Of a DNA stretch of 34,525 nucleotides, positions 1-11,846 are shown in pieces. Source of the stretch: a virus; the IMG/VR virus record IMGVR_UViG_3300047409_000540, positions 1 to 34,525 of that record; one strand, written 5' to 3'. The notes below the pieces were generated by a model. It had not been told where the DNA came from. It did no database searches and saw only the letters and a program-made list of their open reading frames with translations. Made by a program: the position numbers and the translations under genes. The first letter of the stretch is position 1. Every line of letters begins with the position of its first letter.

Positions 1-115
1 CCTGGCGCGGCTCCGGGGCCTTCAACCCGATGAAGGCCTTGACCTTCCCCCAGGCGCCCGCGAGCCTTTGCGTCAGCCTCCGCCCGGTCCCGCCACCACC
101 GTTCCCTCGCTCCAT
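1..115 (-). CDS. Partial CDS running off the left edge, unknown function
   Basis: Only the first 38 codons are present; no stop occurs before the edge. The start is ATG at 115, preceded by a strong AGGAGG about 6 nt upstream on the minus strand, which is why I accept it. The visible N-terminus is Gly- and Arg-rich (MERGNGGGGTGRR) followed by an amphipathic stretch (LAGAWGKVKAFIGLK). It follows the 200-568 gene after an 84-nt gap, so it is probably in the same leftward transcript. No family recognised. Confidence 0.5.
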   Translation of the reverse strand, partial: MERGNGGGGTGRRLTQRLAGAWGKVKAFIGLKAPEPRQ

Positions 116-199
116 TTTTCTCCTCCTCAGACCATCCACACTCACAGCCAAGGCCCCATGCCTCGCACCGTGCGCCATCCCAGGGCGGCCTGGTCTGAG

Positions 200-568
200 T
201 CACCTGACCCGGACCACCCGGCCGTCCACCACGTCCACTCCCGGAGGGAGATGCAACACGCGTGCCTGAATCCTGCGGCGCCCGAACCGGACGCCCTCCT
301 GGTGCCTCCGCATGAACACGTCCAGGTGGAGGCCGTGGACCTTGGAGCCGGTGCTCTCGCATACCATCGGTCCGGACTTCCAGCTCCACGCCCCAGGCCT
401 CTCCGCCGGGACCTCGAGCTGGAGCACGGCGCCCAACAGCTTGGGGTCACACGCCAGGGTCCGGCCCACCACAGGAGGAGTCCCGGCCTTCGTGGGCGCG
501 CCCAGCCATCGAGGGCCGACGCACAGCACACAGGCACAGAAGGCCGTCACCAGGAAGGTGATGGTCAC
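200..568 (-). CDS. Small protein with N-terminal membrane/signal segment, unknown function
   Basis: This is a 122-residue protein. The GTG start at 568 overlaps the preceding stop as GTGA, the pattern used through this operon. The first 17 residues (MTITFLVTAFCACVLCV) are hydrophobic and Cys-rich and look like a signal or single membrane anchor. The remainder is soluble and basic, with an Arg-rich C-terminus ending VDVVDGRVVRVR. It lies downstream of the amidase and the two-helix membrane protein, so an envelope or lysis-accessory role is possible, but no family is recognised. Confidence 0.55.
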   Translation of the reverse strand: MTITFLVTAFCACVLCVGPRWLGAPTKAGTPPVVGRTLACDPKLLGAVLQLEVPAERPGAWSWKSGPMVCESTGSKVHGLHLDVFMRRHQEGVRFGRRRIQARVLHLPPGVDVVDGRVVRVR

Positions 569-786
569 AGGTCCAGCTCCCGCGCTATCAGCTCGAGCGT
601 GGCATCCACCACGCTCCGCGGGTCCACCGCCTCCTCGAGGGCTACGGGCAGCACACGCCTGGTGACGTATCGCGGGCCGCGCCTGGCGGTGAGGGACAAC
701 ACGCCCAGCTCGGTCCTGATGACCAGCTCCTCGAATCCGAACCGGGCACGGAGTTCCGGCATGTCCATTCTCGCCAGCAGCCTCAC
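565..786 (-). CDS. Hypothetical 73-aa protein
   Basis: The start is GTG at 786 with AGGAGG 6 nt upstream and a GTGA overlap with the preceding gene, so the short version is preferred over the longer open frame. The protein is acidic at its C-terminus (a run of E and D with VVDATLELIARELDL) and has a central basic beta-like segment (TARRGPRYVTRRVLP). No catalytic motif, membrane helix or metal site is visible. Its N-terminal heptads suggest a small helical protein. Function unknown. Confidence 0.6.
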   Translation of the reverse strand: MRLLARMDMPELRARFGFEELVIRTELGVLSLTARRGPRYVTRRVLPVALEEAVDPRSVVDATLELIARELDL

Positions 787-1007
787 GCCGCACCTCCTTC
801 GACACAGGACCCAGAGCACACCACCAGCTCCTCCGCACTCTTTCGGAGTAGGGCCTGGAGGTCCAGGGCAGTTTCCTCGGGCATGACGCCCGCAAAGGGG
901 CGGCGCCCCGGTTCGTGAAAGGCCACGCGGAACATGCCTCCTAACAGGTCCCCCGTGATGCACCCGAACCCGTACCCCGGATGCAAAAACGCGTCTCCCA
1001 CTTTCAT
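783..1007 (-). CDS. Small beta-rich protein, CarD/Tudor-like N-terminus
   Basis: This is a 74-residue product. The ATG at 1007 overlaps the previous stop as ATGA. The N-terminus reads KVGDAFLHPGYGFGCITGD followed by a hydrophobic strand (FRVAF), the usual look of a small SH3-like or CarD-type beta barrel (a VGD..HP.YG.G.I pattern). The second half (ETALDLQALLRKSAEELVV) is an amphipathic helix. A nucleic-acid or RNA polymerase contact is possible by analogy with CarD N-domains, but the similarity is only motif-level. Confidence 0.55.
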   Translation of the reverse strand: MKVGDAFLHPGYGFGCITGDLLGGMFRVAFHEPGRRPFAGVMPEETALDLQALLRKSAEELVVCSGSCVEGGAA

Positions 1008-1111
1008 TGGGCCCCGCACATGGAGCACGGGACCGGCGCCCCAATCGCTGCGTTCCGGGAGCAGTTTGGGCACAGCCAATGCTCTGGCGTCTCGTCCCAT
1101 CTCCGCCTCAC
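1004..1111 (-). CDS. 35-aa zinc-ribbon microprotein
   Basis: This very short frame is accepted because it has a GTG start overlapping the upstream stop (GTGA), ends in an ATGA overlap with the next gene, and carries two clean knuckles, CPNC and CSMC, 12 residues apart at its C-terminus. Without it the 1008-1107 stretch would be a gap in an otherwise seamless operon. It is essentially just one zinc ribbon preceded by a short charged segment. The partner or target is unknown; such ribbons commonly bind nucleic acid or protein. Confidence 0.55.
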   Translation of the reverse strand: MRRRWDETPEHWLCPNCSRNAAIGAPVPCSMCGAQ

Positions 1112-1329
1112 CTCCAGAATCTCCCCAGGAGCAGGGAGCGCCTGGACAGAGGCTTCCCCACCTCCACCGCGGAGGCCAGGGCCACGGCCACGCCTGCGAC
1201 CACCTGGCCAGCGGAGGGCGCGGCCTTCTCCTGGCGCACCTCCTCCACCGCGTCCCTCAGCCGGTTCATGGTGGCCGCGGTGATGATGTCCCCGTTTTTG
1301 AAGACGGGCAGCGGACCCGGGACCGCCAC
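1108..1329 (-). CDS. Small protein with C-terminal transmembrane helix
   Basis: This is a 73-residue protein from GTG at 1329, which overlaps the previous TAG by one base. The N-terminal half contains FKNGDIITAATMNRLRDAVE, a pattern seen in phage tail/baseplate-type proteins just before a helix. Residues about 41-58 (GQVVAGVAVALASAVEVG) form a membrane-length hydrophobic helix, followed by a basic tail (SRRSLLLGRFWR). It sits beside the two-helix membrane protein downstream of the endolysin, so a lysis-accessory or membrane role is likely. No firm family. Confidence 0.55.
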   Translation of the reverse strand: MAVPGPLPVFKNGDIITAATMNRLRDAVEEVRQEKAAPSAGQVVAGVAVALASAVEVGKPLSRRSLLLGRFWR

Positions 1330-1529
1330 TACTTGGCCCCCAGGGCCGCGCCCAAGGAAACCTTGTGCCACTTCCCACCGATCCCGTACCGGATCTTCCC
1401 AACGGTGATGCCCAACGCGAACCGCCACCCGTTGCGGAAGAGCGCCAGGGCCACACGCTGACGGATGGGGCACGGCTTCGTCTGGATGCTCACCTGGTGG
1501 CGCCGGCCTCGAGGCCTCTTCCGCTTCAT
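1329..1529 (-). CDS. Small highly basic protein
   Basis: This is a 66-residue protein starting at ATG 1529, which overlaps the preceding stop (ATGA); GAGG lies about 7 nt upstream. It begins MKRKRPRGRRH and stays strongly basic, with repeated FRNGWRFALGITVGKIRYG beta-like segments. There are no Cys pairs or membrane helices. High basicity suggests nucleic-acid or membrane-surface binding. Function unknown. Confidence 0.6.
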   Translation of the reverse strand: MKRKRPRGRRHQVSIQTKPCPIRQRVALALFRNGWRFALGITVGKIRYGIGGKWHKVSLGAALGAK

Positions 1530-1705
1530 CGGGTCCTCGTCCAGAACACGCCCGACACCATGGCCAGGGCAAGGTAAACGAATCCCGCGGCCACCTTCCA
1601 TCCGTAGTGGTCCGCGATGCTCACGAGGTAGCACGCGAAAACTCCCGCGGCCACCGCGAAGGCCAGGAGCGCGATGAGGGTATCAACAGCTCGGCGGCGC
1701 GTCAT
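1526..1705 (-). CDS. 59-aa membrane protein with two helices, holin candidate
   Basis: The frame has ATG at 1705 overlapping the upstream stop (ATGA) and its own TGA overlapping the next ATG. The N-terminus is MTRRR. Helix 1 is about residues 9-30 (LIALLAFAVAAGVFACYLV) and helix 2 about 37-55 (VAAGFVYLALAMVSGVF), joined by a short loop, and it ends in TRTR. Two helices with charged ends, two genes after the endolysin, fit a class II-type holin. No sequence family is claimed. It is too short to be found by a typical length cut-off. Confidence 0.6.
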   Translation of the reverse strand: MTRRRAVDTLIALLAFAVAAGVFACYLVSIADHYGWKVAAGFVYLALAMVSGVFWTRTR

Positions 1706-1965
1706 GCCTTCCTCCTGGACAGCCTGGCCACCTGGCGCAGGGCGTAGCGGCGGCGGTACTTGTGGTCCTGGACAGGCGCGAGGTAGAGAGACGTCCCGGG
1801 GCTCCGCAGTACCGCCCGGTCAATCCGCTTCAGCATCCTCCTGGAAACGGTAAAGGAGACGTCTCCGAAGGAGACAAGGTTACTGATGACATGGCACATG
1901 CCCTGATAGCGCGGCTCCTTGAAGTAGTGCGCCAGGTATTTCCAGGCGGACCGTTCCGTCATCAT
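1702..1965 (-). CDS. Basic 87-aa protein in the lysis region
   Basis: The start is at ATG 1965 (a second ATG follows at 1962) with a perfect AAGGAGG 7 nt upstream, one of the best ribosome sites on this strand. The gene overlaps the amidase stop upstream and the holin candidate downstream. The protein is Arg/Lys/Tyr-rich, with a hydrophobic middle (ISNLVSFGDVSFTV) and a very basic C-terminus (ARLSRRKA). The strong ribosome site implies high expression. No known family recognised. Confidence 0.6.
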   Translation of the reverse strand: MMTERSAWKYLAHYFKEPRYQGMCHVISNLVSFGDVSFTVSRRMLKRIDRAVLRSPGTSLYLAPVQDHKYRRRYALRQVARLSRRKA

Positions 1966-2510
1966 GACAACACCTCCTTGACAGTGCGTAGGAAGAAGTC
2001 CATGGGAAACGACGGACCCGGGTCCCAATGGTCACCATGACCTGGAAAGGCCAGGGACGCCAGGTTGTGAGTGGTGATGCCCCGGCCGGTCTGGAGCCGG
2101 AGAATGTCGTGCGTCACCAGGACCGGGGGAATGTCCCAGGCCTTGCACAGGGCCGCCACGAGGTCCGCGGCTCGGCGCACGGTCAGGCTCGAGTCCGCGT
2201 CCGCCCACTGGGCCGCGGATTGCTTGGCCTCGCCGCACAGCTCAACACCGATGCCCCGCCCGTTCACGCCCCACGCGTGCCACGCCGCGGCCTGGGTGGG
2301 GACGCACTGGATGACCTCCTTGGGGTCCACCACGTAGTGGGCGGAGGCCCGGCATCGGGAGTCCTGAAACCACGCGGCCACGGCGCGCGCGGACCCCGCG
2401 TACTCCTTGCCCTCCGTGGAGTGCAGGACGATGAGGTCCACGCGTGTCCGCCCGAACTGCGGCCCTTGATTCTCACTCTCGAGGAGTGGCACCGTCGCCA
2501 GGTCTATCAC
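1962..2510 (-). CDS. Endolysin, N-acetylmuramoyl-L-alanine amidase (Amidase_2/PGRP-like)
   Basis: The predicted lysis enzyme cuts the amide bond between muramic acid and the stem peptide. It has 182 residues from GTG 2510, chosen for its GTGA overlap and the AAGGAG 9 nt upstream; an in-frame ATG at 2558 is the alternative. Family signatures are VLHSTEG with candidate zinc ligand His30, SAHYVVD at 56-62, the helix AWHAWGVNGRGIGVELCG, and TTH (His148) plus HWDPGPSFP with Asp163 in the usual third-ligand position. No cell-wall-binding domain or signal peptide is present, so a holin would be needed; the 1526-1705 gene is the candidate. Confidence 0.85.
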   Translation of the reverse strand: MIDLATVPLLESENQGPQFGRTRVDLIVLHSTEGKEYAGSARAVAAWFQDSRCRASAHYVVDPKEVIQCVPTQAAAWHAWGVNGRGIGVELCGEAKQSAAQWADADSSLTVRRAADLVAALCKAWDIPPVLVTHDILRLQTGRGITTHNLASLAFPGHGDHWDPGPSFPMDFFLRTVKEVLS

Positions 2511-2719
2511 TTCGCTGCTCTCCTTCGGATTGCGCGGACTGCGGGGCGGTGCATCCATAGCCCCAAGCATCCCGGCTCACACTCTTTCCCCTCCGCCATC
2601 CGACGAACGCGGGCCAGACACTCCGCGGTCCAGTCCACGCCCCGCATGGTGATCCATCCGTAGGGGACCCAGCTGACGGTGTTGAACGTGCCGGCTGCGT
2701 CATAGGCCGTGTACCTCAT
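2507..2719 (-). CDS. Hypothetical 70-aa protein
   Basis: The ATG at 2719 overlaps the upstream stop as ATGA, so this start is preferred over one seven codons earlier. The N-terminal half is Tyr/Trp-rich (RYTAYDAAGTFNTVSWVPYGW), followed by an amphipathic helix (AECLARVRRMAEG) and a short Cys pair region (ECEPGCLGLW). The C-terminus is basic (AIRRRAAK). It lies directly before the amidase. No recognised domain. Confidence 0.55.
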   Translation of the reverse strand: MRYTAYDAAGTFNTVSWVPYGWITMRGVDWTAECLARVRRMAEGKECEPGCLGLWMHRPAVRAIRRRAAK

Positions 2720-3096
2720 CCCCGCTCCAGTCCGGCCCACAGCTCTTTCCTGTAGGGCTCCTGTGGGCCTTTGGGCAGATCAAGGCCCAGGCCCAGCTCC
2801 TCTATCAGAAGGGGGATAGTGACGTCAATGGCCACATGGAGGTCCACGTCCCGGAGGCGGTATGCCCGTCCGTGCCAGAGTCTGTACTCGAATCCGAACA
2901 GACACTGGCCGGCAAGCACCGGAGTCCAGCCCCCGCCAACGTGATCCTCTACCTCCAGGACCCCAGTGGGGAACCGCTCTTTCACCGCGGCCAGCAGCTT
3001 CGACACGAAGAGGTCCCTGGCCTGGTCCTCCGTGCGCTCCTTCTCAGCTTTCAGCCGCGCCTGGCTGAACCGCTCCATGTGAGTCATGCTCTTCAC
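2716..3096 (-). CDS. Hypothetical 126-aa protein
   Basis: GTG at 3096 is chosen because GGAGG lies 7 nt upstream; the first ATG at 3087 would be 16 nt away. Residues about 8-40 are a charged helix (ARLKAEKERTEDQARDLFVSKLL), followed by a mixed alpha/beta part with LRDVDLHVAIDVTIPLLIEELG. This looks like a compact cytoplasmic phage protein with no visible catalytic site. It is separated from the gene upstream by only two bases. Confidence 0.6.
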   Translation of the reverse strand: MKSMTHMERFSQARLKAEKERTEDQARDLFVSKLLAAVKERFPTGVLEVEDHVGGGWTPVLAGQCLFGFEYRLWHGRAYRLRDVDLHVAIDVTIPLLIEELGLGLDLPKGPQEPYRKELWAGLERG

Positions 3097-3098
3097 GC

Positions 3099-3602
3099 CT
3101 ACTCCTCCTTCCTCACAAACGGCAGGACCTTGTTCGTGGTCACGGGCACCGCGGACCGCTCCGGGGGATTCAGGACGTACACCGCAACGCCCTGGACCAG
3201 CTCCATGAGGTCCCACCGCTCAAGGGCCGCATCGTGCGACCGGAGTAGGGCGTGACTCGCGGGCGCCCGGTCCAGCCGCGGAGGGACGGCCTCGCGGACC
3301 GGGGTCATGAGGTGCCGCGGCGCCGGGAGCTGCACGGTGTAGCCCCGCGCCATGAGCGCCACGTCCACCCGCCGCGCGTCCCTCGAGAAGACGCACACCG
3401 CCGTACTCCCGGAGGCCAGGGCGGCCACCTGGTAGCGCGCGCTCCGCTCGAGGTCCCCCACACCCTGGGCCCACTCCACGTCCGCGGAGCTGAAGGCCCC
3501 GTCCGGAGCCTGGACCGAAACGCGGACCCCGTTCTCGATGACGGAAAACATCACGGAGGTCCCCTCCGGGCATCCCTGTAGCACCCTGGCCAGCCTCTTC
3601 AT
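3099..3602 (-). CDS. Hypothetical 167-aa protein
   Basis: The start is ATG 3602, giving the ATGA overlap with the Zn-ribbon gene upstream; the frame is open further upstream but without operon-style overlap. The N-terminal half is beta-rich (TSVMFSVIENGVRVSVQAPDG), with GSTAVCVFSRDARRVDVALM in the middle, and the C-terminal half has AVPPRLDRAPASHALLRSHD. No metal site or membrane segment is seen. No family recognised. Confidence 0.6.
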   Translation of the reverse strand: MKRLARVLQGCPEGTSVMFSVIENGVRVSVQAPDGAFSSADVEWAQGVGDLERSARYQVAALASGSTAVCVFSRDARRVDVALMARGYTVQLPAPRHLMTPVREAVPPRLDRAPASHALLRSHDAALERWDLMELVQGVAVYVLNPPERSAVPVTTNKVLPFVRKEE

Positions 3603-3895
3603 GACTTCGTCTCCTCCTGCTCTAGATACTGACGCCACGACGGATTCCGCTCCAGCTCCCACGCGCCGTTCCGCGCCACCTGGGCGCGGATGCACGCGGG
3701 GCACGTCACGCCTCGAGGGAGGACGGACGCGCGGCCAGGGTAGGACTCCCCGCACCGAATCGCGTTCGTGAAGGGGTCCCGGAGGTGAACCGGGCTGACG
3801 TCCTGGCACCCGGTTCCGAAACAGACAGGGCACCGTAGCTGGTCCGGGCCGGGAGGTGCGCCACTACCTCCGCACGTGTTGCACGCCCGCGTCAT
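3599..3895 (-). CDS. 98-aa zinc-finger protein with DnaJ-like CxxCxGxG knuckles
   Basis: The N-terminus carries CNTCGGSG (Cys5, Cys8) and CPVCFGTGC (Cys22, Cys25, Cys30), the repeat form of the DnaJ central zinc domain. A further Cys48 and CPAC (Cys65, Cys68) may form a second site. The C-terminus is a charged helix (SWRQYLEQEETKS). Its ATG overlaps the downstream operon as ATGA. By family knowledge such knuckles bind zinc and often unfolded protein or nucleic acid; the actual partner is not visible. Confidence 0.65.
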   Translation of the reverse strand: MTRACNTCGGSGAPPGPDQLRCPVCFGTGCQDVSPVHLRDPFTNAIRCGESYPGRASVLPRGVTCPACIRAQVARNGAWELERNPSWRQYLEQEETKS

Positions 3896-4194
3896 CTGAG
3901 CACCACCGCTCCGTTAGGTCCTCGCTCCACGATGACGTCCCGGCCGGTGTCCTTCTTGAAAAAGCACCGGAAGCAGAGGCCCCCTACTCGAGGGCGCCGC
4001 GTCTTGTACGTCACACCACAGGCGCAAACGGCCTGGACCAGAGGACGCGGAGCACATCGGACGCACGTTGCGGCCTCCGGGACCTGGGTGAAGCGGAGCG
4101 TGCCGCGGTTGTAGCTACCACACACGGCCTCCCGGTAGTCTCCCAGGTGCTCCGTTCCCCTCTTCAGGAGATGGACCCGCGGCTGGGGGGTCAT
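3892..4194 (-). CDS. 100-aa Cys-rich (zinc-ribbon) protein
   Basis: ATG at 4194 overlaps the SprT-like stop as ATGA. Cysteine pairs are CVRC (44/47), CAC (57/59) and CFRC (74/77), plus Cys25, enough for two zinc sites. The N-terminal half is polar and may be a beta hairpin (GTLRFTQVPE). The C-terminus (RDVIVERGPNGAVVLR) is beta-like. It directly follows the SprT-like metalloprotease, which also ends in a zinc ribbon, so they may act together; that link is inferred from position only. Confidence 0.6.
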   Translation of the reverse strand: MTPQPRVHLLKRGTEHLGDYREAVCGSYNRGTLRFTQVPEAATCVRCAPRPLVQAVCACGVTYKTRRPRVGGLCFRCFFKKDTGRDVIVERGPNGAVVLR

Positions 4195-4745
4195 CGGCGG
4201 CCCGCCTGGAAGGACCCGCCGCAGTCGTTGCACGTGGCGTGGAAGTCATCCCGGGCCACGCGGACCTTGATGCCACACTCACAGATGAAGAGGCGGAGCC
4301 GGGAGCCGGGTTTCGCGGAGCTGGCCGGGGCGAGGAGCGCCGGGTGAGGGTACGCGGGCAGGCGCTTCGCCAGGGCCTCGAGCTGGAAGGTCAGCTGCTC
4401 CGTGCTGGGCGTGGACGTCCAGGGCTTGCGGAACCCGCACGCCTTGGCCACCTTGACGAAGCCTCCCTTGTGGCCCTCGCCAGGGGTGGCCGCGTGGATC
4501 AGCTCATGGAGCAACGTCTCGAGCACCGGCAGGACCGCGGACAGCTCCGGGCTGATGAAGATGTGCGCGAGGCCGTCCGCGGAGGCGGATCCTTGCCAGC
4601 ACTGCCCAATCGCCTTGCGACCACCGCGGGACCCCTTGGGGAACCCGACGCTCACGTGGGCGTCCGGGACCGTGGTGTTCGCCCGGGCGCTCACCAGCTC
4701 CCGGAGTTCCGCCGCCGCCATCCTCAGCCACTCTTCTCTGGTCAT
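4191..4745 (-). CDS. SprT-like zinc metalloprotease with C-terminal zinc ribbon
   Basis: This is a 184-residue protein. The active site is HELIH at 80-84, inside LLHELIHAATPGEGHKGGF, with His92 as third ligand, the arrangement of SprT/Spartan-type zincins. The C-terminal ribbon uses Cys155, Cys157, Cys172 and Cys175. SprT-family proteins are known for DNA-protein crosslink handling; whether the phage one does this is inference. I use ATG 4745 because GGAGG is 5 nt upstream. ATG 4757 is also possible and would keep the same 12-nt distance from the TGGCACG box seen at the two sister promoters. It is the first gene of its transcription unit. Confidence 0.8.
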   Translation of the reverse strand: MTREEWLRMAAAELRELVSARANTTVPDAHVSVGFPKGSRGGRKAIGQCWQGSASADGLAHIFISPELSAVLPVLETLLHELIHAATPGEGHKGGFVKVAKACGFRKPWTSTPSTEQLTFQLEALAKRLPAYPHPALLAPASSAKPGSRLRLFICECGIKVRVARDDFHATCNDCGGSFQAGRR

Positions 4746-4769
4746 TCTCGCCTCCATGCCGTTCTTGAA

Positions 4770-4785
4770 TGCAGGACGCGTGCCA
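4770..4785 (-). promoter_or_regulatory. Sigma-54-like -24/-12 box, module 1 (upstream of the SprT-like gene)
   Basis: The minus strand reads TGGCACGCGTCCTGCA. GG and GC are separated by exactly 10 bp, as in the sigma-54 consensus (TGGCACG, then TTGC), with CTGC in place of TTGC. The predicted start would be near 4759. It lies 12 nt before ATG 4757 and 24 nt before ATG 4745. The same box occurs at 5693-5708 and 7302-7317. Confidence 0.55.
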
Positions 4786-4844
4786 GCCGTAACTCGTTTA
4801 AACATGGCGAACCGGGGGCCTCGAGGGCGACAAAAAACGGCGCA

Positions 4845-4864
4845 GTGACAACAATTGTTGTCAC
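4845..4864. promoter_or_regulatory. Perfect 20-bp palindrome, operator/activator-site candidate, module 1
   Basis: The sequence GTGACAACAATTGTTGTCAC is a perfect inverted repeat that also contains the TGA stop of the 4861-5187 gene. It is centred about 95 bp upstream of the predicted start of the box at 4770-4785, the usual distance for a sigma-54 activator site. A related palindrome occurs at 5779-5796. Confidence 0.6.
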
Positions 4865-5187
4865 GCGGGATACTCCTCCCGGGGGAGGCCGGCGTCCGCC
4901 AGGTACTTGGGCCAGCAGCTCCGGCAGATTCCATGCGAGGTCCCGCCGTCCTGCTCCGGGGCGCACGGCACGGCGCCGTACACCGCGCGGCACACACAGC
5001 ACGCCACGGCCAGCTTCGGCACCGTGTAGGCCAGGACCAGGTCACCCTTCGCGCGGAGGAGGACGCACCGCAAGCACTCCACCAGCTCCGCGTCCGTCAC
5101 CAGGGACGTCAGGCGCACGGCGGCCGGCTGGCCGCAGGCGCACGCGGCCCCGGACGCGCGGGTCACGTACCAGGACGGGGCGCTCAC
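4861..5187 (-). CDS. 108-aa Cys-rich protein with several zinc knuckles
   Basis: GTG 5187 overlaps the previous stop (GTGA). The protein has CAC (16/18), CLRC (38/41), CCVC (63-66), Cys75 and CRSC (88/91), enough for two zinc sites. Its C-terminus, CWPKYLADAGLP, resembles the end of the preceding gene (CQAYLAALGLP), so the two look like diverged tandem relatives. The stop codon is built into the regulatory palindrome. Function unknown; nucleic-acid or protein binding is plausible. Confidence 0.6.
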   Translation of the reverse strand: MSAPSWYVTRASGAACACGQPAAVRLTSLVTDAELVECLRCVLLRAKGDLVLAYTVPKLAVACCVCRAVYGAVPCAPEQDGGTSHGICRSCWPKYLADAGLPREEYPA

Positions 5188-5462
5188 GCGCGGGGCTCCG
5201 GAAGGGACGGGAGGCCCAGGGCGGCCAGGTACGCCTGGCACTCGCGGCGGAAGGGCTCCCGGGACTTGCAGTCCGGGCAGTCCACGTCCAGAGGACTCCG
5301 GGTCACCCGGGTCCCGCCCACGGCCCCGCACAGGGCCTGGGAGCCCCACGCCAGGTGGAGGAGGGCACGCCTGGGGACTGCAACACCACAGATGTCGCAG
5401 ACCGCGTGTCCTTGCCAGCTGAGGTGTTGCTTCCACACATGAAGGTGCGCTGGCGTCTTCAT
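5184..5462 (-). CDS. 92-aa Cys/His-rich zinc-ribbon protein
   Basis: ATG 5462 overlaps the upstream stop as ATGA. Pairs CDIC (22/25) and CPDC (62/65), with Cys45, Cys75 and several His near the N-terminus (AHLHVWKQHLSWQGH), suggest a zinc fold. The C-terminal CQAYLAALGLP is shared in form with the next gene. No catalytic residues are recognised. Confidence 0.6.
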   Translation of the reverse strand: MKTPAHLHVWKQHLSWQGHAVCDICGVAVPRRALLHLAWGSQALCGAVGGTRVTRSPLDVDCPDCKSREPFRRECQAYLAALGLPSLPEPRA

Positions 5463-5680
5463 TCCTGGCCCTCCCTCATCTCGCGGCGTTCACGCGCGGT
5501 GAGCGCCTTGGGCTGGAGGATCCGGCGGCGCCGGGCCTCGTCCGTCACGAAGGCCACCTGGGCCGCCAGGACCTGGTCACCGGCCAAGGGGCCCGCGGCC
5601 AGCTTCGCGGACGTCTCCAGCCACCGGAGGATTTCCAGGTTGGAGGTCAGCGTGATTCCGTTCCCGAAGGGGTCACTCAT
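5459..5680 (-). CDS. 73-aa helical protein, first gene of a transcription unit
   Basis: ATG 5680 lies 12 nt after the TGGCACG box of module 2 and follows AGGGAAGG. The sequence is mostly helical (LEILRWLETSAKLAAGPLAGDQVLAAQVAFV) with a very basic, charged C-terminus (ARRRRILQPKALTARERREMREGQE). It ends in an ATGA overlap with the zinc-ribbon gene. A DNA-binding or regulatory role is possible from the charge pattern but not shown. Confidence 0.6.
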   Translation of the reverse strand: MSDPFGNGITLTSNLEILRWLETSAKLAAGPLAGDQVLAAQVAFVTDEARRRRILQPKALTARERREMREGQE

Positions 5681-5692
5681 GCCCTTCCCTAA

Positions 5693-5708
5693 TGCAGCAT
5701 CCGTGCCA
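5693..5708 (-). promoter_or_regulatory. Sigma-54-like -24/-12 box, module 2
   Basis: The minus strand reads TGGCACGGATGCTGCA, with GG and GC 10 bp apart as in sigma-54 promoters. The predicted start near 5682 would be only two bases before ATG 5680. A 13-bp block, AAACAAAGGACTT on the minus strand (5724-5736), is also present upstream of module 3 (7324-7336). Confidence 0.55.
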
Positions 5709-5778
5709 GGCCTCGAGGCCCGCAAGTCCTTTGTTTGCGTCTCCACCCACTCCTCCGGGCTGACACTTTTTGGCGGAG

Positions 5779-5796
5779 TGACAGCAATTGTTGTCA
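5779..5796. promoter_or_regulatory. Imperfect 18-bp palindrome, operator/activator-site candidate, module 2
   Basis: The sequence TGACAGCAATTGTTGTCA differs from the module 1 palindrome at one position. It is centred about 105 bp upstream of the predicted start of module 2. On the minus strand both copies are followed by CACT(G/C)CGCC and, 6 nt later, by an extra TGTC half-site. The 5681-5838 gap holds no gene that I can support. Confidence 0.55.
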
Positions 5797-5838
5797 TGTA
5801 CCGCCCTGGAGGGGCGAGGACACCAGGGCCCAGAGGCT

Positions 5839-6066
5839 TCACAGGAGCCCCTGGCCGTCCAGGAATAGGAGGACGTCCGACAGAGTCCGGAGGGAGTCCT
5901 GGAAGAACGTCCGGCCGTCAATCACCAGGGTCCAGCACCCACGGGACCGACACGCGGTCCACCTGGCCCCGCGGTAGACCTCCACGCCACCCTCGAGAGA
6001 GTACTCATACCGCGCCAGGGTCCCCCGGCCGCCGGGGACCATGACGCGGGTGTAGCGCACGCTCAC
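5839..6066 (-). CDS. Hypothetical 75-aa protein
   Basis: GTG 6066 overlaps the upstream stop as GTGA. The protein is compact and beta-rich: VRYTRVMVPGGRGTLARYEYSL, then VEVYRGARWTA and CWTLVIDGRTFF, ending in a helix with LSDVLLFLDGQGLL. It has two Cys but no paired knuckle. It is the last gene of the unit that begins at 7288. No family recognised. Confidence 0.6.
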   Translation of the reverse strand: MSVRYTRVMVPGGRGTLARYEYSLEGGVEVYRGARWTACRSRGCWTLVIDGRTFFQDSLRTLSDVLLFLDGQGLL

Positions 6067-7124
6067 GAGGCCGCCACCTCAGCGGGGACACGGTCCAGGA
6101 ACCGGGCCTTGGCCGGGCGCTTTCCGAAGGCGAAATGGGCGTCACGGTCGGACCGGGTCAGGGTGACCGTCATGGCAACGCGGGCGCCCTTCAGCTCTCG
6201 GCGGAGGTTGTCGTCCGCCCAGTCCGCGTGCAGGGCCTCAAAGAGGGAGCCGGGGCACGTGACCCACGCGGCCCAGGAGCCTTCCGGGGTCTGGACCTTG
6301 ATGACCAGTTTGGTGACCTCAGACCCGTACGCGAATCCGGGCTGGGTCTTCACGGACACCACCGTCCCCTCGATTTCCAGGCGGCCCTCCGGCGCCGGCA
6401 CCTTGGCCTCCTCCACCACGGGCGTCAGGAGCTGCTGGGCCAGCTTGACCGCGTAGGCCTCCTGCTTCTCGGAGAGGGACCCGAACCGGAGCAGCTTGCC
6501 GTTCATGTCCTGGAGGATGCTGTACGCGCGCGCCTGGACCTTCTCCTGGAAGGACAGGGGCTCCGGCTCCTGGTCCTCCGCGATGCCCACACCGTAGCCG
6601 TGGAGGCGCGCCACGAGGCGCTGGGCCGCGTCCGTCTGTCCCAGTTCGAGGGCGGCCTCCAGCTCCGGCTTCGCCGCGAGGTACGCGAACCGGGCCGTCT
6701 TGCGCTTGCACTGCTGAATCGCCAGGGCGCGGCGGGCCGTCTCCTGGACGTGCCACGCGGCCCACTGGGAGCGGTCCGCGAGGAGGGAGTACTTGGAGGA
6801 GCAGTCATGCCCCATGCGGAGGTACTGACCCGTGGGCTGGTGAAACCACACGTCCCCGTTCCGGAAGGTGGCGCCGCACACCTGGCACCGGGACTCCTCC
6901 GCACCGAAGGACGGGTGCTGGAAGAAGGGGGCGCCGGACCGCTCGAGGCCGGCCAGGCAGCAATCCAGCTGCTCGGAGTGGGGCGCCGGAGCGCACGTCA
7001 TCCCGTATTCATACGTGTTCCCGTCCGCGTCCATCACGGGCAGGGAGTAAGAGAGGATGTACGTGTAGTCACACGGCATGATGGCGCCGGGGCGGTGTGG
7101 GTCGGTCCGGACCTGGGCCTTCAT
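6063..7124 (-). CDS. Zinc-finger plus OB-like domain phage protein
   Basis: This is a 353-residue protein; ATG 7124 overlaps the small upstream gene (ATGA). A later ATG (7079, MPCDYTYILSY) is possible. The N-terminal domain contains CQVCGATFRNGDVWFHQPTG followed by GHDCSSKY, that is Cys80, Cys83, His95 or His106 and Cys108, a zinc site of a type I associate with uncharacterised phage proteins. The middle is helical. The C-terminal third (IEGTVVSVKTQPGF... through LKGARVAMTVTLTRSD) has the strand pattern of an OB-like fold. Nucleic-acid binding is a reasonable inference; no enzyme motif is seen. Confidence 0.65.
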   Translation of the reverse strand: MKAQVRTDPHRPGAIMPCDYTYILSYSLPVMDADGNTYEYGMTCAPAPHSEQLDCCLAGLERSGAPFFQHPSFGAEESRCQVCGATFRNGDVWFHQPTGQYLRMGHDCSSKYSLLADRSQWAAWHVQETARRALAIQQCKRKTARFAYLAAKPELEAALELGQTDAAQRLVARLHGYGVGIAEDQEPEPLSFQEKVQARAYSILQDMNGKLLRFGSLSEKQEAYAVKLAQQLLTPVVEEAKVPAPEGRLEIEGTVVSVKTQPGFAYGSEVTKLVIKVQTPEGSWAAWVTCPGSLFEALHADWADDNLRRELKGARVAMTVTLTRSDRDAHFAFGKRPAKARFLDRVPAEVAAS

Positions 7125-7288
7125 CGGAGTCCCGCCGCGTTCATGGCCAGGGCCTGTTCGTGGAGGCCGTTGAGGCGCCCTAAGGCCTCGAATTCCGCCG
7201 ACACGCGCGGAGTCTTTGCCAGCTTCATCTGTCGAGCACTCGTCCACTTCGCCTTGCGTCCCATCCTCCGCCGTGCCTTGCTCTTCAT
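7121..7288 (-). CDS. 55-aa very basic protein, first gene of a transcription unit
   Basis: ATG 7288 lies 13 nt after the module 3 box and directly after GAGAGGAGG; TGA overlaps the next ATG. It begins MKSKARRRMGRKAKW and continues with a helical middle (EFEALGRLNGLHEQALAM). Strong basicity suggests nucleic-acid contact. It is below common length cut-offs, but the frame fills its slot exactly between promoter and next gene. Confidence 0.6.
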   Translation of the reverse strand: MKSKARRRMGRKAKWTSARQMKLAKTPRVSAEFEALGRLNGLHEQALAMNAAGLR

Positions 7289-7301
7289 GCCTCCTCTCTA
7301 T

Positions 7302-7317
7302 TGCAGGACGCGTGCCA
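7302..7317 (-). promoter_or_regulatory. Sigma-54-like -24/-12 box, module 3
   Basis: The minus strand reads TGGCACGCGTCCTGCA, identical over all 16 bases to module 1, and is 13 nt from ATG 7288. The predicted start is near 7291. It lies downstream of the methyltransferase gene, so it would start a second transcript inside the leftward run. Confidence 0.55.
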
Positions 7318-7359
7318 GGCCGTAAGTCCTTTGTTTCTGAACCGCCGGGGGAGGCCTGG

Positions 7360-7373
7360 GACAAGAATTGTCA
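7360..7373. promoter_or_regulatory. Degenerate TGACA palindrome, module 3
   Basis: The minus strand reads TGACAATTCTTGTC, which aligns to the module 1 palindrome with a three-base loss in the left half. It is centred about 75 bp upstream of the predicted module 3 start. This is the weakest of the three copies. The 7289-7437 gap contains no gene that I can support. Confidence 0.4.
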
Positions 7374-7437
7374 GGCCCAAACGTATAATCAACGACTTAG
7401 CCGTACTCAATCCGATACACGGGTCCGACACTTCTTG

Positions 7438-8484
7438 TCAGTCCTCCGCGAAGAGGGGGCCCGCGATGCGGCGCCGCGCGATGGCCGCGTACTCCGGGTC
7501 CAGCTCGAGGCCCAGGAATCGGAATCCCTCCGCCAGGGCCGCCACTCCCGTAGACCCGGACCCCATGAACGGGTCCAGCACCAGGCCTCCAGGAGGGGTC
7601 ACGAGACGGCACAGCCACCGCATCAGGTCCACCGGCTTGACGGTGGGGTGTGCGTTCTTCCCGGCATAGTGGCGCTCACCACTGCTGGCCTTGGAGGTGT
7701 AGAAGAACCTCGAGGCACCGTCACTCCTGGCGTCCAGGCTCGAGGCCGCCTCCGCGTCCAGCACCAGGTTCGCGGGCCACCTTCCGATGACGTCCTTGGC
7801 CTTGGCCTCGTCCGTGGTGGCATACCCCCCGTAGGCCTTCTCCGGGGCTCCCATGGGCTGATTCGTCCGGGCCTCCGTCCCGATGCGGCACCCGTCCACG
7901 TTGAGCGCCCCGGGCCCGTGCTCCAGGACGTTGGCGGCCACCGTTCCCTCCACGGGCCTCCTGGCCAGGACGATGGGCTCCCAGGCGGGCTTGAGGGCTG
8001 TCCCCCATCCTTGCCACCTCGAGGCCGCCTCCGTCACCGCCTCCGGGCCCGCCACGGTGTGGTCCGGGTCAGACATCCAGGGCCGGAGGTTCCCCGCGTT
8101 GGCGTGGTAGGCCGCGGCGGCGCTGGCGGGTTTCGTCCGCTTTCGCTCCGCCCCGGCCGCCTTGTCGATGGCCTTGGACACGTCCAAGGACTTGGGGAAC
8201 CCAGACCCATACAGCCACATCAGGCAGTCCCGCACCTCGAGGCCCGCGTCCTCGATGGCGCACGCCAGGCGGTGGTAGGTCCTGGTCCCCCCGAAGGCCA
8301 CCAGGTGACCCCCCGGCTTGAGGACCCGCAAGGCCTCCACCCAGAAGGGCACACCAGGGACACCGTGGTCCCACTCCTTGCCCATGAAGGCCAGGCCGTA
8401 CGGCGGGTCCGTGACGATGGCGTCCACGCTCGAGGCCTCGAGGCGCGGCATGAGGGCCCGGCAGTCCCCCACCTGAATCTCCAT
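7438..8484 (-). CDS. Beta-class DNA methyltransferase (N6-adenine or N4-cytosine)
   Basis: This is a 348-residue enzyme transferring methyl from SAM to an exocyclic amino group in DNA. The catalytic motif IV is DPPYG (26-30), near the N-terminus; the SAM motif I, DPFMGSGSTG (304-313), is near the C-terminus, followed by LGLELDP. This motif order defines the beta group. The middle (about 110-270) holds the target-recognition region. ATG 8484 shares one base with the polymerase stop (TGATG), so the two are probably translationally coupled. No restriction endonuclease is seen beside it, so an orphan protective methylase is likely. The recognition site cannot be read from sequence. Confidence 0.88.
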   Translation of the reverse strand: MEIQVGDCRALMPRLEASSVDAIVTDPPYGLAFMGKEWDHGVPGVPFWVEALRVLKPGGHLVAFGGTRTYHRLACAIEDAGLEVRDCLMWLYGSGFPKSLDVSKAIDKAAGAERKRTKPASAAAAYHANAGNLRPWMSDPDHTVAGPEAVTEAASRWQGWGTALKPAWEPIVLARRPVEGTVAANVLEHGPGALNVDGCRIGTEARTNQPMGAPEKAYGGYATTDEAKAKDVIGRWPANLVLDAEAASSLDARSDGASRFFYTSKASSGERHYAGKNAHPTVKPVDLMRWLCRLVTPPGGLVLDPFMGSGSTGVAALAEGFRFLGLELDPEYAAIARRRIAGPLFAED

Positions 8485-10457
8485 CACAAGGCCACCTTGT
8501 CCTTCCAGTTTCGGCCCACCTTGGAGTCCCACAGGATCTGGACCCGGAGCTGGGTCCGCTCCGGCTGGCGGTTCAGGATGTCATCGCATCGGCGCGCGGC
8601 CTCCTGGTCCGGCACGTCTCCCACCACCTCGTCATGGATGGTCATTCGCATCGTGAGGCCCAGGGCCTTGCGCTCACGGTACAGGTCCACCAGCTTTTCC
8701 TTATTCACGTCCGCCGCGGTCCCCTGGACCACCGCATTGAGGGCCTTGTGGAGCCGCGGGCACGCGCCACAGGACTCCCGCCGGCCCTGCTCATCCTTGC
8801 TTGGGCCAGTCCACCCGTGCCGCGGGCACGCCTTGAACCGCGCCCTACGCCCCAGGACCGTCCGCACGTAGCCCCGGCTCTCCGCGGTAGTGGCGGCCTT
8901 GCGGAGCGTACCCTGGGCCTCCGGAATCGCCTGGCGGTAGGCCTCCACGATTTTCCGGGCCTCCTCCACGGTGACGCCCAACATCCGGGCGTGTTTGTCC
9001 ACACCGCCCCCAAAAAGGTTCATGAAATTCAAGGTCTTGATTTCGCGGCGCGTGAAGGACACATCAGGCCGCGCGGCCCGCGCAATCGGGCCCGTGATGT
9101 CATCGTGGAAGTCCACCTCCGGGTCCTCGAGGTAGACCCCCAGCATTCGGTCACTCACTTTGGTCCGGGCCGCAATGTCCGCGAACACCCGGTACTCAAT
9201 CTGCTTCGCGTCCGCCGAAAACAGGAGCCGGCCCTCCGGCGCCACGTACAGCTCCTTCACCTCCGGGGACACCTGTTGGATGTTGGCGCCCTCGTCTCTC
9301 GTGGCCTTGGAGCAGCTGAACCGGCCCGACACGGTCCCGCCTCCGTCGTTGCGGAGCTGGTGCAGGCTGAACCGGAGCAGTCCGTCCGCCTGCACGCTGG
9401 CACTGTAGGGGACGACGAACTTGGACCTGAAGTCCTTGGCCGCGCCGGCCTCCCTGATGGCCTCCGCCACCGGATGCCCCGCGGCGGCCAGGCACTCATC
9501 GGAGAAGGACAGCCGGCCCGTTTTCTCGTCACGGAATCCCGTGAGAGGAATCTCCGCGGCGCGGTCCTCCCAGACCTTGACTCCTGCACGCTCGAGGACG
9601 GCCAGGACATCCGCGCGGACATCGGGATTGACTGCGCGGCCCGTCAGCCGGCGGAGCGCCTGGTGCGCCGCGGCCTCGCGCGCCACGCTCTCCACGTCCC
9701 ACGCCCTCAGCTTCTCCACATCAATGAGCGCCGCGTTTCGCTCCATCTCCACGACGACGGGCAACACGTCACGCTCGAGCTGGAGCACGGGGCCCAGGTG
9801 TTGCGCCTCGAGCAGCGGACGGAACCGGTCCGCCAGGCGCAGCACCAGGGACGCGTCCTGGCGTCCGTAGGGTGCTATCTCCCACTCCGCGTACACGTGG
9901 GCGCCGCGCTTCATATCGAGGCCCTGGACTTTTCCGGCGCCCAGGTAGTCCTGTGCGATGCCCTCGAGGCTGAAGCCTCCTGTCACCACACCGTCCACCG
10001 TCCGCGCCCAGCCGCGGTGGTCATCGAGGAGCGCCACCTCGTGGCCCACGTCTCCCAGCTCGAGGGCCACGTCCGCGAGAGCACGCCCGGTCAGGACTTC
10101 GAAGTGGTGCGCGTCAAACTGAGTGTTGAGTCCCAGGACCACCTTCCCGCGGAGGCCCTGGTCACTCACCAGCCATCGGACCGCCGCGTCCTCGGAGACG
10201 CCACTCCCGTCCTTGGCCGCCCAGCTCACGTACCTGGACCTGACGTGGGAGTCCTCGTGCCACGAGATGGAGAGGCCGATGGGTTTGTCTCCGGCCCACC
10301 AGCGGAGGCCGGTGGTTTCCATGTCGAAGGCCACCGGTCCGCGAACGCGTGAGAGGTCCGGGAGTGTGTCGGGCACCCAGTCCGCCGGGCGAGGCCCCGG
10401 GACGTGAGGCGCTATCACGTCCAGGGGTGTGAGGTCAAACAGACAGGCCTGGGTCAT
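8484..10457 (-). CDS. Family A DNA polymerase with 3'-5' exonuclease
   Basis: This is the 657-residue replicative polymerase. Exonuclease motifs: Exo I DMETTGL with Asp45/Glu47; Exo II LGLNTQFD with Asp115; Exo III YGRQD with Tyr197/Asp201. Polymerase motifs: A is DAKQIEYR (Asp416, Glu421); B is RREIKTLNFMNLFGGG (Arg470, Lys474, Phe478); C is IHDE (His608, Asp609). Phe at the position equal to E. coli 762 predicts discrimination against dideoxynucleotides. Motif B has NFM..LFG in place of the common NFG..YG. Between B and C lies CPRH...CGAC (Cys544, His547, Cys563, Cys566), a possible zinc site. ATG 10457 overlaps the upstream stop (ATGA); GTG 10466 is an alternative. Confidence 0.92.
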   Translation of the reverse strand: MTQACLFDLTPLDVIAPHVPGPRPADWVPDTLPDLSRVRGPVAFDMETTGLRWWAGDKPIGLSISWHEDSHVRSRYVSWAAKDGSGVSEDAAVRWLVSDQGLRGKVVLGLNTQFDAHHFEVLTGRALADVALELGDVGHEVALLDDHRGWARTVDGVVTGGFSLEGIAQDYLGAGKVQGLDMKRGAHVYAEWEIAPYGRQDASLVLRLADRFRPLLEAQHLGPVLQLERDVLPVVVEMERNAALIDVEKLRAWDVESVAREAAAHQALRRLTGRAVNPDVRADVLAVLERAGVKVWEDRAAEIPLTGFRDEKTGRLSFSDECLAAAGHPVAEAIREAGAAKDFRSKFVVPYSASVQADGLLRFSLHQLRNDGGGTVSGRFSCSKATRDEGANIQQVSPEVKELYVAPEGRLLFSADAKQIEYRVFADIAARTKVSDRMLGVYLEDPEVDFHDDITGPIARAARPDVSFTRREIKTLNFMNLFGGGVDKHARMLGVTVEEARKIVEAYRQAIPEAQGTLRKAATTAESRGYVRTVLGRRARFKACPRHGWTGPSKDEQGRRESCGACPRLHKALNAVVQGTAADVNKEKLVDLYRERKALGLTMRMTIHDEVVGDVPDQEAARRCDDILNRQPERTQLRVQILWDSKVGRNWKDKVAL

Positions 10458-10672
10458 CGTATCCACTCGAGGAGGAATGCACCGCCATCGAGAGGCACAA
10501 CACGAAGGCGCCGCCCACGGTCGGATGTTGTCTCCACCCGTAGCGCACCCGGCCTGTCAAAGAACACGGTCACAGTTTCATGCGCTCCTTCCTGGAAAGT
10601 GAGAGTACTCTCCGCGTGAAGGTCCAGAGACGCCACCGCCTGGTCTACGTGGATGCGCCTCTGGACCGGCAT
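10454..10672 (-). CDS. Small beta-rich protein before the polymerase
   Basis: This is a 72-residue protein starting at ATG 10672, one base after the upstream TAG. It reads as a run of short strands: ESTLTFQEGAHETVTVFFD, then ALRVETTSDRGRRLRVVPL and GAFLLEWIR, a jelly-roll or SH3-like pattern. No catalytic residues. It is translationally linked to the polymerase through ATGA, so a replication-accessory role is possible but unproven. Confidence 0.6.
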   Translation of the reverse strand: MPVQRRIHVDQAVASLDLHAESTLTFQEGAHETVTVFFDRPGALRVETTSDRGRRLRVVPLDGGAFLLEWIR

Positions 10673-10673
10673 T

Positions 10674-11210
10674 CTAGAGCGATGCCTCCGTGGCCACGGT
10701 CACGGGGCGAGGACGTGCGTGTGTCCGCGGGAACGTCCTCTCGATGCGCGAGTGCTCCGCCACGGCGCGGTATCCGAAAGAGCGGAGCCGCGAGTGGATG
10801 TAGTAGATCGTGGTCCGCGGAAATTCGAAAGCGCCTTCACCGTCCGTCTCCTGGACGAGAGGATGCTCCGGGAAAAACAGCGCCCGAAACGTGAGAGCGA
10901 AGGCCGCGGTGTTCTGGAGCGTGCCGTCCTCGCCGCGCCACATGCGGCCCCGACGTCCGCGGATCTTGCCGATGCCCAGGTGTGCCGCGGTGAGGTACGC
11001 GTCAGAGTGGGCCACCACCAGCGATTCGCTGGGCGCGAATCCTCGCGCGCGGTTCTCCTCGAGGGCGTCCTGGTGCGCCGCGTTCATGCTGCGCGCGCTG
11101 AAGGGCAACGCTCGCACGGTGCGAGGTTTCCGTGGAGTACTCTCGACCCACACCCCGCGCTCCTCGCTGTACTCCAGCGGATTCTTCACGATTCGGCCTT
11201 GTTTCAACAC
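10674..11210 (-). CDS. Unknown early leftward protein, 178 aa
   Basis: This is the first gene after the leftward promoter at 11231-11259. GTG 11210 is chosen because GGAGG stands 6 nt upstream and the nearby ATG at 11213 hits a stop after one codon. The protein is basic, with GIGKIRGRRGRMWRGEDGT in the middle, then FALTFRALFFPEHPLVQE and a Tyr-rich FPRTTIYYIHSRLRSFGYRA. No known motif. As the promoter-proximal gene it may be an early takeover or regulatory protein; that is inference. Confidence 0.6.
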   Translation of the reverse strand: MLKQGRIVKNPLEYSEERGVWVESTPRKPRTVRALPFSARSMNAAHQDALEENRARGFAPSESLVVAHSDAYLTAAHLGIGKIRGRRGRMWRGEDGTLQNTAAFALTFRALFFPEHPLVQETDGEGAFEFPRTTIYYIHSRLRSFGYRAVAEHSRIERTFPRTHARPRPVTVATEASL

Positions 11211-11230
11211 ATTCCACCTCCAGTACCGAA

Positions 11231-11259
11231 AGCATAGCAACGCCCGCGGGACGTGTCAA
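11231..11259 (-). promoter_or_regulatory. Sigma-70-like leftward promoter
   Basis: On the minus strand, TTGACA (11259-11254) and TATGCT (11236-11231) are 17 bp apart. The -35 is a perfect match and the -10 matches 4 of 6. The spacer carries the palindrome CCCGCGGG (11243-11250). It would start the leftward run beginning with the 178-aa gene. Confidence 0.7.
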
Positions 11260-11262
11260 GCG

Positions 11263-11291
11263 TAGACTTTCCACAGAAAGTTTGTTAGGAT
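11263..11291 (+). promoter_or_regulatory. Sigma-70-like rightward promoter with palindrome in the spacer
   Basis: TAGACT (11263-11268) and TAGGAT (11286-11291) are 17 bp apart, each 4 of 6 to consensus. The spacer contains ACTTTC-CACA-GAAAGT (11266-11281), an inverted repeat placed where a repressor would block the promoter. It leads to the 11320 gene with AAAGGAGGT at 11307-11315. Confidence 0.5.
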
Positions 11292-11319
11292 GCCTTTGTC
11301 ATTTAGAAAGGAGGTCCCA

Positions 11320-11598
11320 ATGGTGGACCTGGAAGGATATGTGATGGCGCGTGACCTCGCGCTACACGCTCACGCGGCGGCCAAGGAAAACCGCGTCAGC
11401 GTTGCTTCGTTTGCTCCTCACCTGGGCGTGTCGGAGGCATTCCTCTACATGCTCCTGGCGCAAGCACACGCGCCCCGCACCCGCGCGAAGGCGGTGGACC
11501 GTCTCCGCACCACCGGGGAAAAGCTGGCGCAGCTCACCGGCTACCAGGGGGAGGTGTTGGACCGCGTGACCGTAACGTCCGCGGCGGTGGCCCAGTGA
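11320..11598 (+). CDS. Small HTH-like early protein, possible regulator
   Basis: This is a 92-residue protein. ATG 11320 follows AAAGGAGGT by 4-5 nt, one of the strongest ribosome sites in the window. Residues about 25-50 (VSVASFAPHLGVSEAFLYML) resemble a helix-turn-helix of the Cro type (LGVS turn followed by a recognition helix). The rest is helical with RLRTTGEKLAQLTG. It is the first gene after the rightward promoter, so it may regulate the divergent promoters. That role is inferred from position and the HTH look only. Confidence 0.6.
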   Translation: MVDLEGYVMARDLALHAHAAAKENRVSVASFAPHLGVSEAFLYMLLAQAHAPRTRAKAVDRLRTTGEKLAQLTGYQGEVLDRVTVTSAAVAQ

Positions 11599-11846
11599 AA
11601 GCGGGCAGCATCACTCCGGGGGACGCCGCAATCCTGGCCCTCCGTGAGCTGAACAGCGCCACGCGTGCCTTCGGTCCGTTCAACACTCCGCACGAGGGAT
11701 GGGCCGTGCTCCTCGAGGAGGTGGATGAGCTGTGGGACGAGGTGAAGCTGAAACCCAGCAAACGCTCCGTGGCGCGGATGCGGAAAGAGGCCATCCAGTG
11801 CGCGGCCATGGCGCTCCGGTTCGTGATTGACTGCTGCCCTGAATGA
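11595..11846 (+). CDS. MazG-like nucleotide pyrophosphohydrolase-type protein
   Basis: This is an 83-residue all-helical protein starting at GTG 11595 (GTGA overlap). HEGWAVLLEEVDELWDEVK contains the EE..E motif that binds metal in MazG/dUTPase-like folds, and MRKEAIQCAAMALRF forms the second helix. It is short and lacks the usual final ExxD aspartate (EAIQ here), so activity is uncertain. In the family the reaction is hydrolysis of NTPs to NMP and pyrophosphate. It lies just before the primase-helicase. Confidence 0.65.
   Translation: MKAGSITPGDAAILALRELNSATRAFGPFNTPHEGWAVLLEEVDELWDEVKLKPSKRSVARMRKEAIQCAAMALRFVIDCCPE

What the first reader, a model, noticed from the sequence alone, without database searches (positions are those of the whole stretch)
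4746..7437. Three copies of a sigma-54-like regulatory module in a phage leftward operon
Seen: minus-strand boxes TGGCACG(C/G)(A/G)T(C/G)CTGCA at 4770-4785, 5693-5708 and 7302-7317, each with GG and GC exactly 10 bp apart, and a TGACA palindrome upstream (4845-4864 perfect 20 bp; 5779-5796 one mismatch; 7360-7373 degenerate). Palindrome centres are about -95, -105 and -75 from the predicted starts, the usual range for sigma-54 activator sites. Modules 2 and 3 also share AAACAAAGGACTT. Modules 1 and 2 share CACT(G/C)CGCC plus an extra TGTC. Established: sigma-54 promoters use TGGCAC-N5-TTGC and an enhancer-bound activator. Inference: the phage uses a host activator, or an unrecognised phage one, to time three transcripts.
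Basis: partly seen in the sequence, partly recalled or inferred. Interest (0 to 1): 0.75.

Follow-up and report, generated by a model that had tools for sequence, protein, structure and literature searches.

The report
Phage promoters borrowing host sigma-54
This virus of bacteria carries three copies of a switch that looks built for its host's emergency-type transcription factor (sigma-54 plus an ATP-driven activator), and the same switch, placed at an almost fixed distance before the start codon, turns up in many unrelated uncultured phages, so a whole set of phages may time its genes by a host signal.

Summary
The three boxes are real and not chance: TGGCACG-N5-TGCA occurs 3 times in the window (mean 0.02 in 300 shuffles), each 12-13 nt before an ATG. 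The 18-bp palindrome TGACAACAATTGTTGTCA is exact in module 1 and has one change in module 2.

The same module (palindrome(s) 40-90 bp upstream, TGGCA-N7-TGC, then N13-14-ATG) occurs in at least nine viral contigs of 39-66% GC that share no module-driven genes with the window. A control with the box reversed found none. A 198-kb contig has 77 TGGCA-N7-TGC sites against 6 for the reversed pattern, with ATG peaking at N13-14.

The box fits the sigma-54 consensus (GG-N10-GC), and the palindromes sit at -75 to -122, a normal enhancer range. No record tested encodes a sigma-54 activator or RpoN, so the host probably supplies both. Predicted start sites are 2-3 nt before ATG, so transcripts should be nearly leaderless. 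Host dnaK promoters in Verrucomicrobiota share that layout.

Best reading: three host-sigma-54, enhancer-dependent promoters that split the leftward genes (probably including lysis) into separately controlled units. Host, activator and timing are unknown; nothing is experimentally shown.

The parts
4770..4785 (-). Module 1 sigma-54-type -24/-12 element TGGCACGCGTCCTGCA
   Evidence: GG-N10-GC; shuffles
4846..4863 (.). Module 1 upstream site, perfect 18-bp palindrome TGACAACAATTGTTGTCA, centre -95.5; begins with the TGA stop codon of the gene upstream
4828..4842 (-). Module 1 second, half-conserved 15-bp site CGCCGTTTTTTGTCG, 19.5 bp centre to centre from the 18-mer
   Evidence: compare the tandem sites in L183 and L007
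4191..4757 (-). First gene after module 1: SprT-like protein (weak Pfam match, below cut-off), ATG 13 nt after the TGC of the box
   Evidence: PF10263, E 0.0035; start inferred from box-ATG spacing
1962..2570 (-). Amidase_2 endolysin further down the same leftward gene series; likely in the module 1 transcript (inference)
   Evidence: PF01510, E 6.5e-23
1526..1705 (-). 59-aa hydrophobic protein next to the amidase, possible holin (inference from sequence)
5693..5708 (-). Module 2 sigma-54-type element TGGCACGGATGCTGCA
5779..5796 (.). Module 2 upstream site TGACAACAATTGCTGTCA, centre -105.5
5761..5775 (-). Module 2 second site CGCCAAAAAGTGTCA, 19.5 bp from the 18-mer centre
5459..5680 (-). First gene after module 2 (73 aa, no family), ATG at predicted +3
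7302..7317 (-). Module 3 sigma-54-type element TGGCACGCGTCCTGCA
7359..7373 (.). Module 3 near upstream site, 15-bp TGACAATTCTTGTCC, centre -75
7426..7440 (.). Module 3 far upstream site, 15-bp TGACAAGAAGTGTCG, centre about -142; its TGA is the stop of the methyltransferase gene
7121..7288 (-). First gene after module 3 (55 aa, basic, no family), ATG at predicted +4
11231..11259 (-). Sigma-70-like TTGACA-17-TATGCT with TG, the only good minus-strand consensus match in 1-12000; candidate primary promoter of the leftward genes (178 aa, PolA, methyltransferase)

Best explanation
Each module is an enhancer-dependent sigma-54 (RpoN) promoter that works with host proteins. Host sigma-54 RNA polymerase binds TGGCACG-N5-TGCA as a closed complex. 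A host AAA+ activator binds one or a pair of TGACR-N5/8-YGTCA palindromes, about 20 bp (two helical turns) apart and centred 75-140 bp upstream, loops over and uses ATP to open the promoter. RNA starts 2-3 nt before the ATG, so translation begins on a nearly leaderless message. The three promoters split the leftward gene series into units ([55 aa-353 aa-75 aa], [73 aa-92 aa-108 aa], [SprT-like ... probably to the amidase endolysin]) whose expression is gated by a host signal, while polA and the methyltransferase probably run from a sigma-70-type promoter near 11,245. Shown: sequences, spacing, recurrence in unrelated contigs, absence of phage-encoded activator or RpoN models. Inferred: sigma-54 use, activator binding, start sites, leaderless translation, operon extents, any timing.
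For: Exact -24/-12 consensus and spacing; the published core is TGGCAC and TGC 5-7 nt apart (PMC12316311), or TGGCACG-N4-TTGC(T/A) (PMC9765219). Not chance in the window. The same module is in L005/L006, L009, L013, L028, L182, L183 (three copies), L184/L185/L188 (near-identical), L186, and partly in L007, at 39-66% GC. In the contigs tabulated, every palindrome-box pair within 300 bp has the palindrome upstream (26 pairs), none downstream. Reversed-box control 0 against 8. Box-ATG offsets peak at N13-14, and the 198-kb G013 has 77 TGGCA-N7-TGC against 6 control. Tandem 18-mer/15-mer centres 19.5-20.5 bp apart in L183, L007 and window modules 1 and 2. No PF00158 in 19 records and no PF04552 in 16. 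Bacteria use the same layout: 23 of 30 Verrucomicrobiota dnaK genes have a box within 120 nt, about a dozen ending 11-15 nt before ATG; in eight Myxococcota genomes an ECF-sigma-like gene has TGACACGACACCGTGTCA some 60 bp before TGGCA-N7-TTGC.
Against: Position -15 is C (G in most other phages), not the consensus T. With +1 at its usual place the purine-rich stretches before ATG in modules 2 and 3 would not be transcribed, so they cannot serve as Shine-Dalgarno sequences. The host is unknown, and no bacterial gene with the phage-type palindrome plus box was found: five genome-wide hits look like chance or are a different dyad, and 388 Verrucomicrobiota genomes gave none. Some box-bearing contigs (G013, L026, L029-L031) lack the palindrome, so it is not universal. 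Records may be incomplete, so an activator gene could lie outside the window. No RNA data.
Confidence: 0.77

Rival explanations
1. The palindromes are operators of a phage repressor (or another phage regulator), and the box is that phage's own promoter element read by a non-sigma-54 polymerase or a phage sigma factor.
For: Phages often repeat operators before several transcripts; the 18-mer is a perfect dyad; G013 carries 77 sites, the density expected of a phage's own promoter class. Some contigs have the box without the palindrome.
Against: The same palindrome occurs in contigs of 39-66% GC whose other genes are largely unrelated, which points to a shared host protein. The palindromes are always upstream at enhancer distance and never overlap the box. 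No HTH regulator was recognised by Pfam in the scanned window proteins. The box has the sigma-54-specific GG-N10-GC.
Confidence: 0.12
2. The box-to-ATG stretch is a translational or RNA-level element (for example a hairpin bound by a phage protein), which would explain the fixed spacing to ATG.
For: The distance from TGC to ATG is nearly constant; in many contigs GCACG-NNN-CGTGC could form a short hairpin.
Against: In the window the box cannot form that hairpin (GCACGCGTCCTGC, GCACGGATGCTGC). An upstream palindrome at -75 to -122 has no role in this model. Bacterial sigma-54-type dnaK promoters show the same spacing.
Confidence: 0.04
3. Sigma-54 promoters, but driven by an unrecognised phage-encoded activator.
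For: The phage-type palindrome was not found with a box in the bacterial genomes sampled.
Against: No PF00158 match in 19 records including a 198-kb contig. Sigma-54 requires an AAA+ activator (established knowledge), and that family is well modelled; the control rang in all 14 known genomes.
Confidence: 0.07

Closest known systems
Sigma-54 (RpoN) promoters with bacterial enhancer-binding proteins (NtrC/PspF/NifA class)
   Same: TGGCACG...TGC with GG-N10-GC; paired dyad sites 75-140 bp upstream; two helical turns between sites
   Different: In phages; -15 is C/G; start codon at predicted +3/+4; dyad TGACR-N5/8-YGTCA matches no activator site that I know
CtrA-controlled promoters of Alphaproteobacteria phages ('lytic deferment', PMC9437464)
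   Same: Unrelated phages carry clustered sites for one host regulator in promoter regions, which the authors see as evolved independently
   Different: Here sigma-54/activator sites instead of CtrA; host and regulator not identified; no binding or reporter data
Sigma-54 control of chaperone genes (chaperone and protease genes in Planctomycetota and Bacteroidota, PMC12316311; [quoted passage not shown]
   Same: Verrucomicrobiota dnaK genes here have the same box-to-ATG layout and TGACA-type half-sites upstream
   Different: Host half-sites (AGTGNGACA, GTGACA) are not identical to the phage palindromes; the box-plus-palindrome combination was not found in 388 genomes
Phage-shock (psp) response, sigma-54/PspF
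   Same: Sigma-54 and phage infection meet
   Different: psp is a host response to phage; here the promoters are in the phage genome

Membership tests
Sigma-54 promoter | -24 GG and -12 GC separated by 10 nt | tested here: met
   three of three
Sigma-54 promoter | TGGCAC at -24 and TTGC at -12 | tested here: inconclusive
   TGGCACG exact; -12 element is CTGC (TGC core met, T at -15 not)
Sigma-54 promoter | Activator binding sites about 80-150 bp upstream | tested here: met
   Conserved palindromes at -75 to -142, only upstream
Sigma-54 promoter | Needs RpoN and an AAA+ activator | not testable with these tools
   Neither is in the phage records; host unknown
Sigma-54 promoter | RNA starts about 12 nt after the -12 GC | not testable with these tools
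   No RNA data
Phage promoters run by a host regulator (CtrA-like strategy) | Same regulator sites recur in phages of different lineages, in promoter regions | tested here: met
Phage promoters run by a host regulator (CtrA-like strategy) | The host regulator is known and binds the sites | not testable with these tools
   Activator not identified
Phage-encoded sigma-54 activation | PF00158 or PF04552 domain in the phage | tested here: not met

The most novel reading that the evidence does not exclude
A widespread, unrecognised set of uncultured phages runs part or most of its transcription from host sigma-54 promoters with nearly leaderless starts, and a subset shares one conserved enhancer for a single host activator, so that phage gene expression (possibly lysis) is gated by a host stress or developmental signal.
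Probability: 0.45. Interest if true: 0.85.

Novelty: new variant of a known kind. Interest (0 to 1): 0.73.

Why it matters
I found no paper in the held library that describes phages built on sigma-54 enhancer-dependent promoters. Such promoters are off unless an activator spends ATP, so a phage that uses them couples its programme to a host signal. The composite signature can be searched for, may help to assign hosts to dark viral contigs, and suggests two direct tests: does rpoN loss block the phage, and does the host signal control lysis? The fixed start-codon spacing also predicts a class of nearly leaderless sigma-54 transcripts, which Verrucomicrobiota dnaK genes seem to share.

Tried and rejected
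Phage-encoded activator or RpoN: none found. Related isolate phages: none near, and no isolate carries the module (one chance match). Myxococcus phage Mx8 as kin: a plain scan found three TGGCA-N7-TGC sites and no TGACA-N5..8-TGTCA palindrome. Host by palindrome + box + RTG over 84,980 species: five hits; L019, L021, L022 and L023 look like chance, L020 proved to be the Myxococcota ECF-sigma-like promoter. Verrucomicrobiota with the phage-type palindrome: none in 388 genomes. Host by TerL in Myxococcota: best identity 39%, no better than isolate phages. TerL relatives in viral contigs (28 loci): no palindrome+box module, so it does not follow TerL ancestry. A fourth near-box at 267-252 (AGGCACGCGTGTTGCA) lies inside a coding frame with no ATG after it: rejected. 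L015-L018 (34% GC) matched the pattern, but their box is one arm of an inverted repeat: set aside. L019-L023 and L187 were also not counted as phage modules.
Full report
OBSERVATION. The window is a 34,525-base virus record, GC 63-70%. PolA, an N6/N4 methyltransferase, a weak SprT-like match and an Amidase_2 lie on the minus strand; a primase-helicase, TerS, TerL, portal, head protease, lambda-D-like decoration protein (HDPD), major head and tail proteins lie on the plus strand. The three boxes are at the stated coordinates and are the only zero-mismatch matches. 300 dinucleotide shuffles give 0.02 on average against 3. The dyads are as described, with the additional sites listed under parts.

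Each box ends 12-13 nt before an ATG. With the C of the -12 GC at -12, the ATG starts at +3 (modules 1 and 2) or +4 (module 3), so a sigma-54 transcript would be nearly leaderless. For module 1 this favours the ATG at 4757, in frame with and 12 nt before the one at 4745. Module 3 has two dyads. In modules 1 and 2 a half-conserved second site lies 19.5 bp from the 18-mer, the spacing of the perfect tandem sites in L183.

COMPARISON. A scan of IMG/VR for TGACANCAATTGTTGTCA gave eight contigs. In L005, L006, L009 and L007, which share little else with the window, it is followed by a sigma-54-type box; the first three also keep N13-ATG. Scans with the composite pattern and with the box alone added more. 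The 15-bp version, TGACR-N5-YGTCA plus box plus ATG, added L182-L188, including L183, which has three copies, two of them with the 18-mer and 15-mer in tandem. L184, L185 and L188 are near-identical and count once. The same pattern with the box reversed gave zero contigs against eight.

POSITION. Over the contigs tabulated, all 26 palindrome-box pairs within 300 bp have the palindrome upstream, 14 of them at 40-80 bp. TGGCA-N7-TGC-N13-ATG had 41 matches in 19 records and no control match; part of this is selection, because several records were fetched by such a match. Less affected is G013 (198 kb, fetched by one site): 77 TGGCA-N7-TGC against 6 reversed, ATG offsets peaking at 13 (12) and 14 (17). 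Its consensus is TGGCACGG-N3-GTGCA, and no TGACA palindrome was apparent upstream, so the core promoter and the enhancer are separable.

MECHANISM. The core agrees with the sigma-54 consensus as published. Enhancer-like dyads at -75 to -142 and two-turn tandem spacing are what an activator of the NtrC class would need (established knowledge). No PF00158 domain was found in 19 virus records, no PF04552 in 16, and no regulator match among the scanned window proteins. The host is therefore the likely source of both. A sigma-70-like site at 11259-11231 may start the leftward series; the sigma-54 modules would then add control for the genes after the methyltransferase. The endolysin lies in the series after module 1, so lysis could be among the gated functions (inference).

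HOST. Unknown. Bacteria with the same layout exist: dnaK in Verrucomicrobiota and various Myxococcota genes with TGGCACG-N5-TGCA-N9-GGCATG (9 of 237 genomes, control 0). A Myxococcota ECF-sigma-like gene in eight genomes has an 18-bp dyad with the same outer halves, TGACACGACACCGTGTCA, at the same distance from a sigma-54 box. Its core differs from the phage dyad, so it is a lead and not an identification.

KNOWN. The nearest precedent found is CtrA control in unrelated Alphaproteobacteria phages (PMC9437464). No paper found describes phages built on sigma-54 promoters; the library is open access only.

VERDICT. A real, recurrent regulatory module; sigma-54 use very likely, host activator likely, timing and signal unknown.

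Noticed in passing
L032 / G013 (loci L086-L095): 198-kb viral contig with 77 TGGCA-N7-TGC sites (6 for the reversed pattern), ATG mostly 13-14 nt after; consensus TGGCACGG-N3-GTGCA, no TGACA palindromes apparent upstream.
   Followed up: partly
L126, L127, L128, L140-L169: Verrucomicrobiota dnaK genes: 23 of 30 have a sigma-54-type box within 120 nt, about a dozen ending 11-15 nt before ATG, with TGACA / AGTGNGACA half-sites upstream in many; suggests sigma-54 heat-shock control.
   Followed up: partly
L172-L179 (Myxococcota genomes): ECF-sigma-like gene with conserved TGACACGACACCGTGTCA, a second GGACAAGCTGACG-like site, TTGGGTTTT and a TGGCAT-N6-TTGC box; looks like an unrecognised activator regulon.
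   Followed up: partly
L183:4374-9050: In L183 a terminator-like hairpin lies between the upstream sites and the box, and a TTGGGTTTTTT stretch precedes the -24 element, as in the Myxococcota promoters.
   Followed up: no
L015-L018 (34% GC): TGGCATGAAATTTGCTGATGCAAGATTTGTGCCA: two overlapping inverted boxes beside a TGACA-N8-TGTCA site; may be a recombination site rather than a promoter.
   Followed up: no
L004, L007, L008 (39-42% GC): Many TGCAC/GTGCA repeats around the 18-bp palindrome.
   Followed up: no
window 22759-26168: SAM-methyltransferase- and glycosyltransferase-like genes sit between TerL and portal, an unusual place for such a cluster.
   Followed up: no
L182:6095 and 6281: A second box (TGGCACGATACTTGC, TGGCACGATTCTTGC) some tens of bp upstream of the start-codon-proximal one: tandem sigma-54-type elements.
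   Followed up: no
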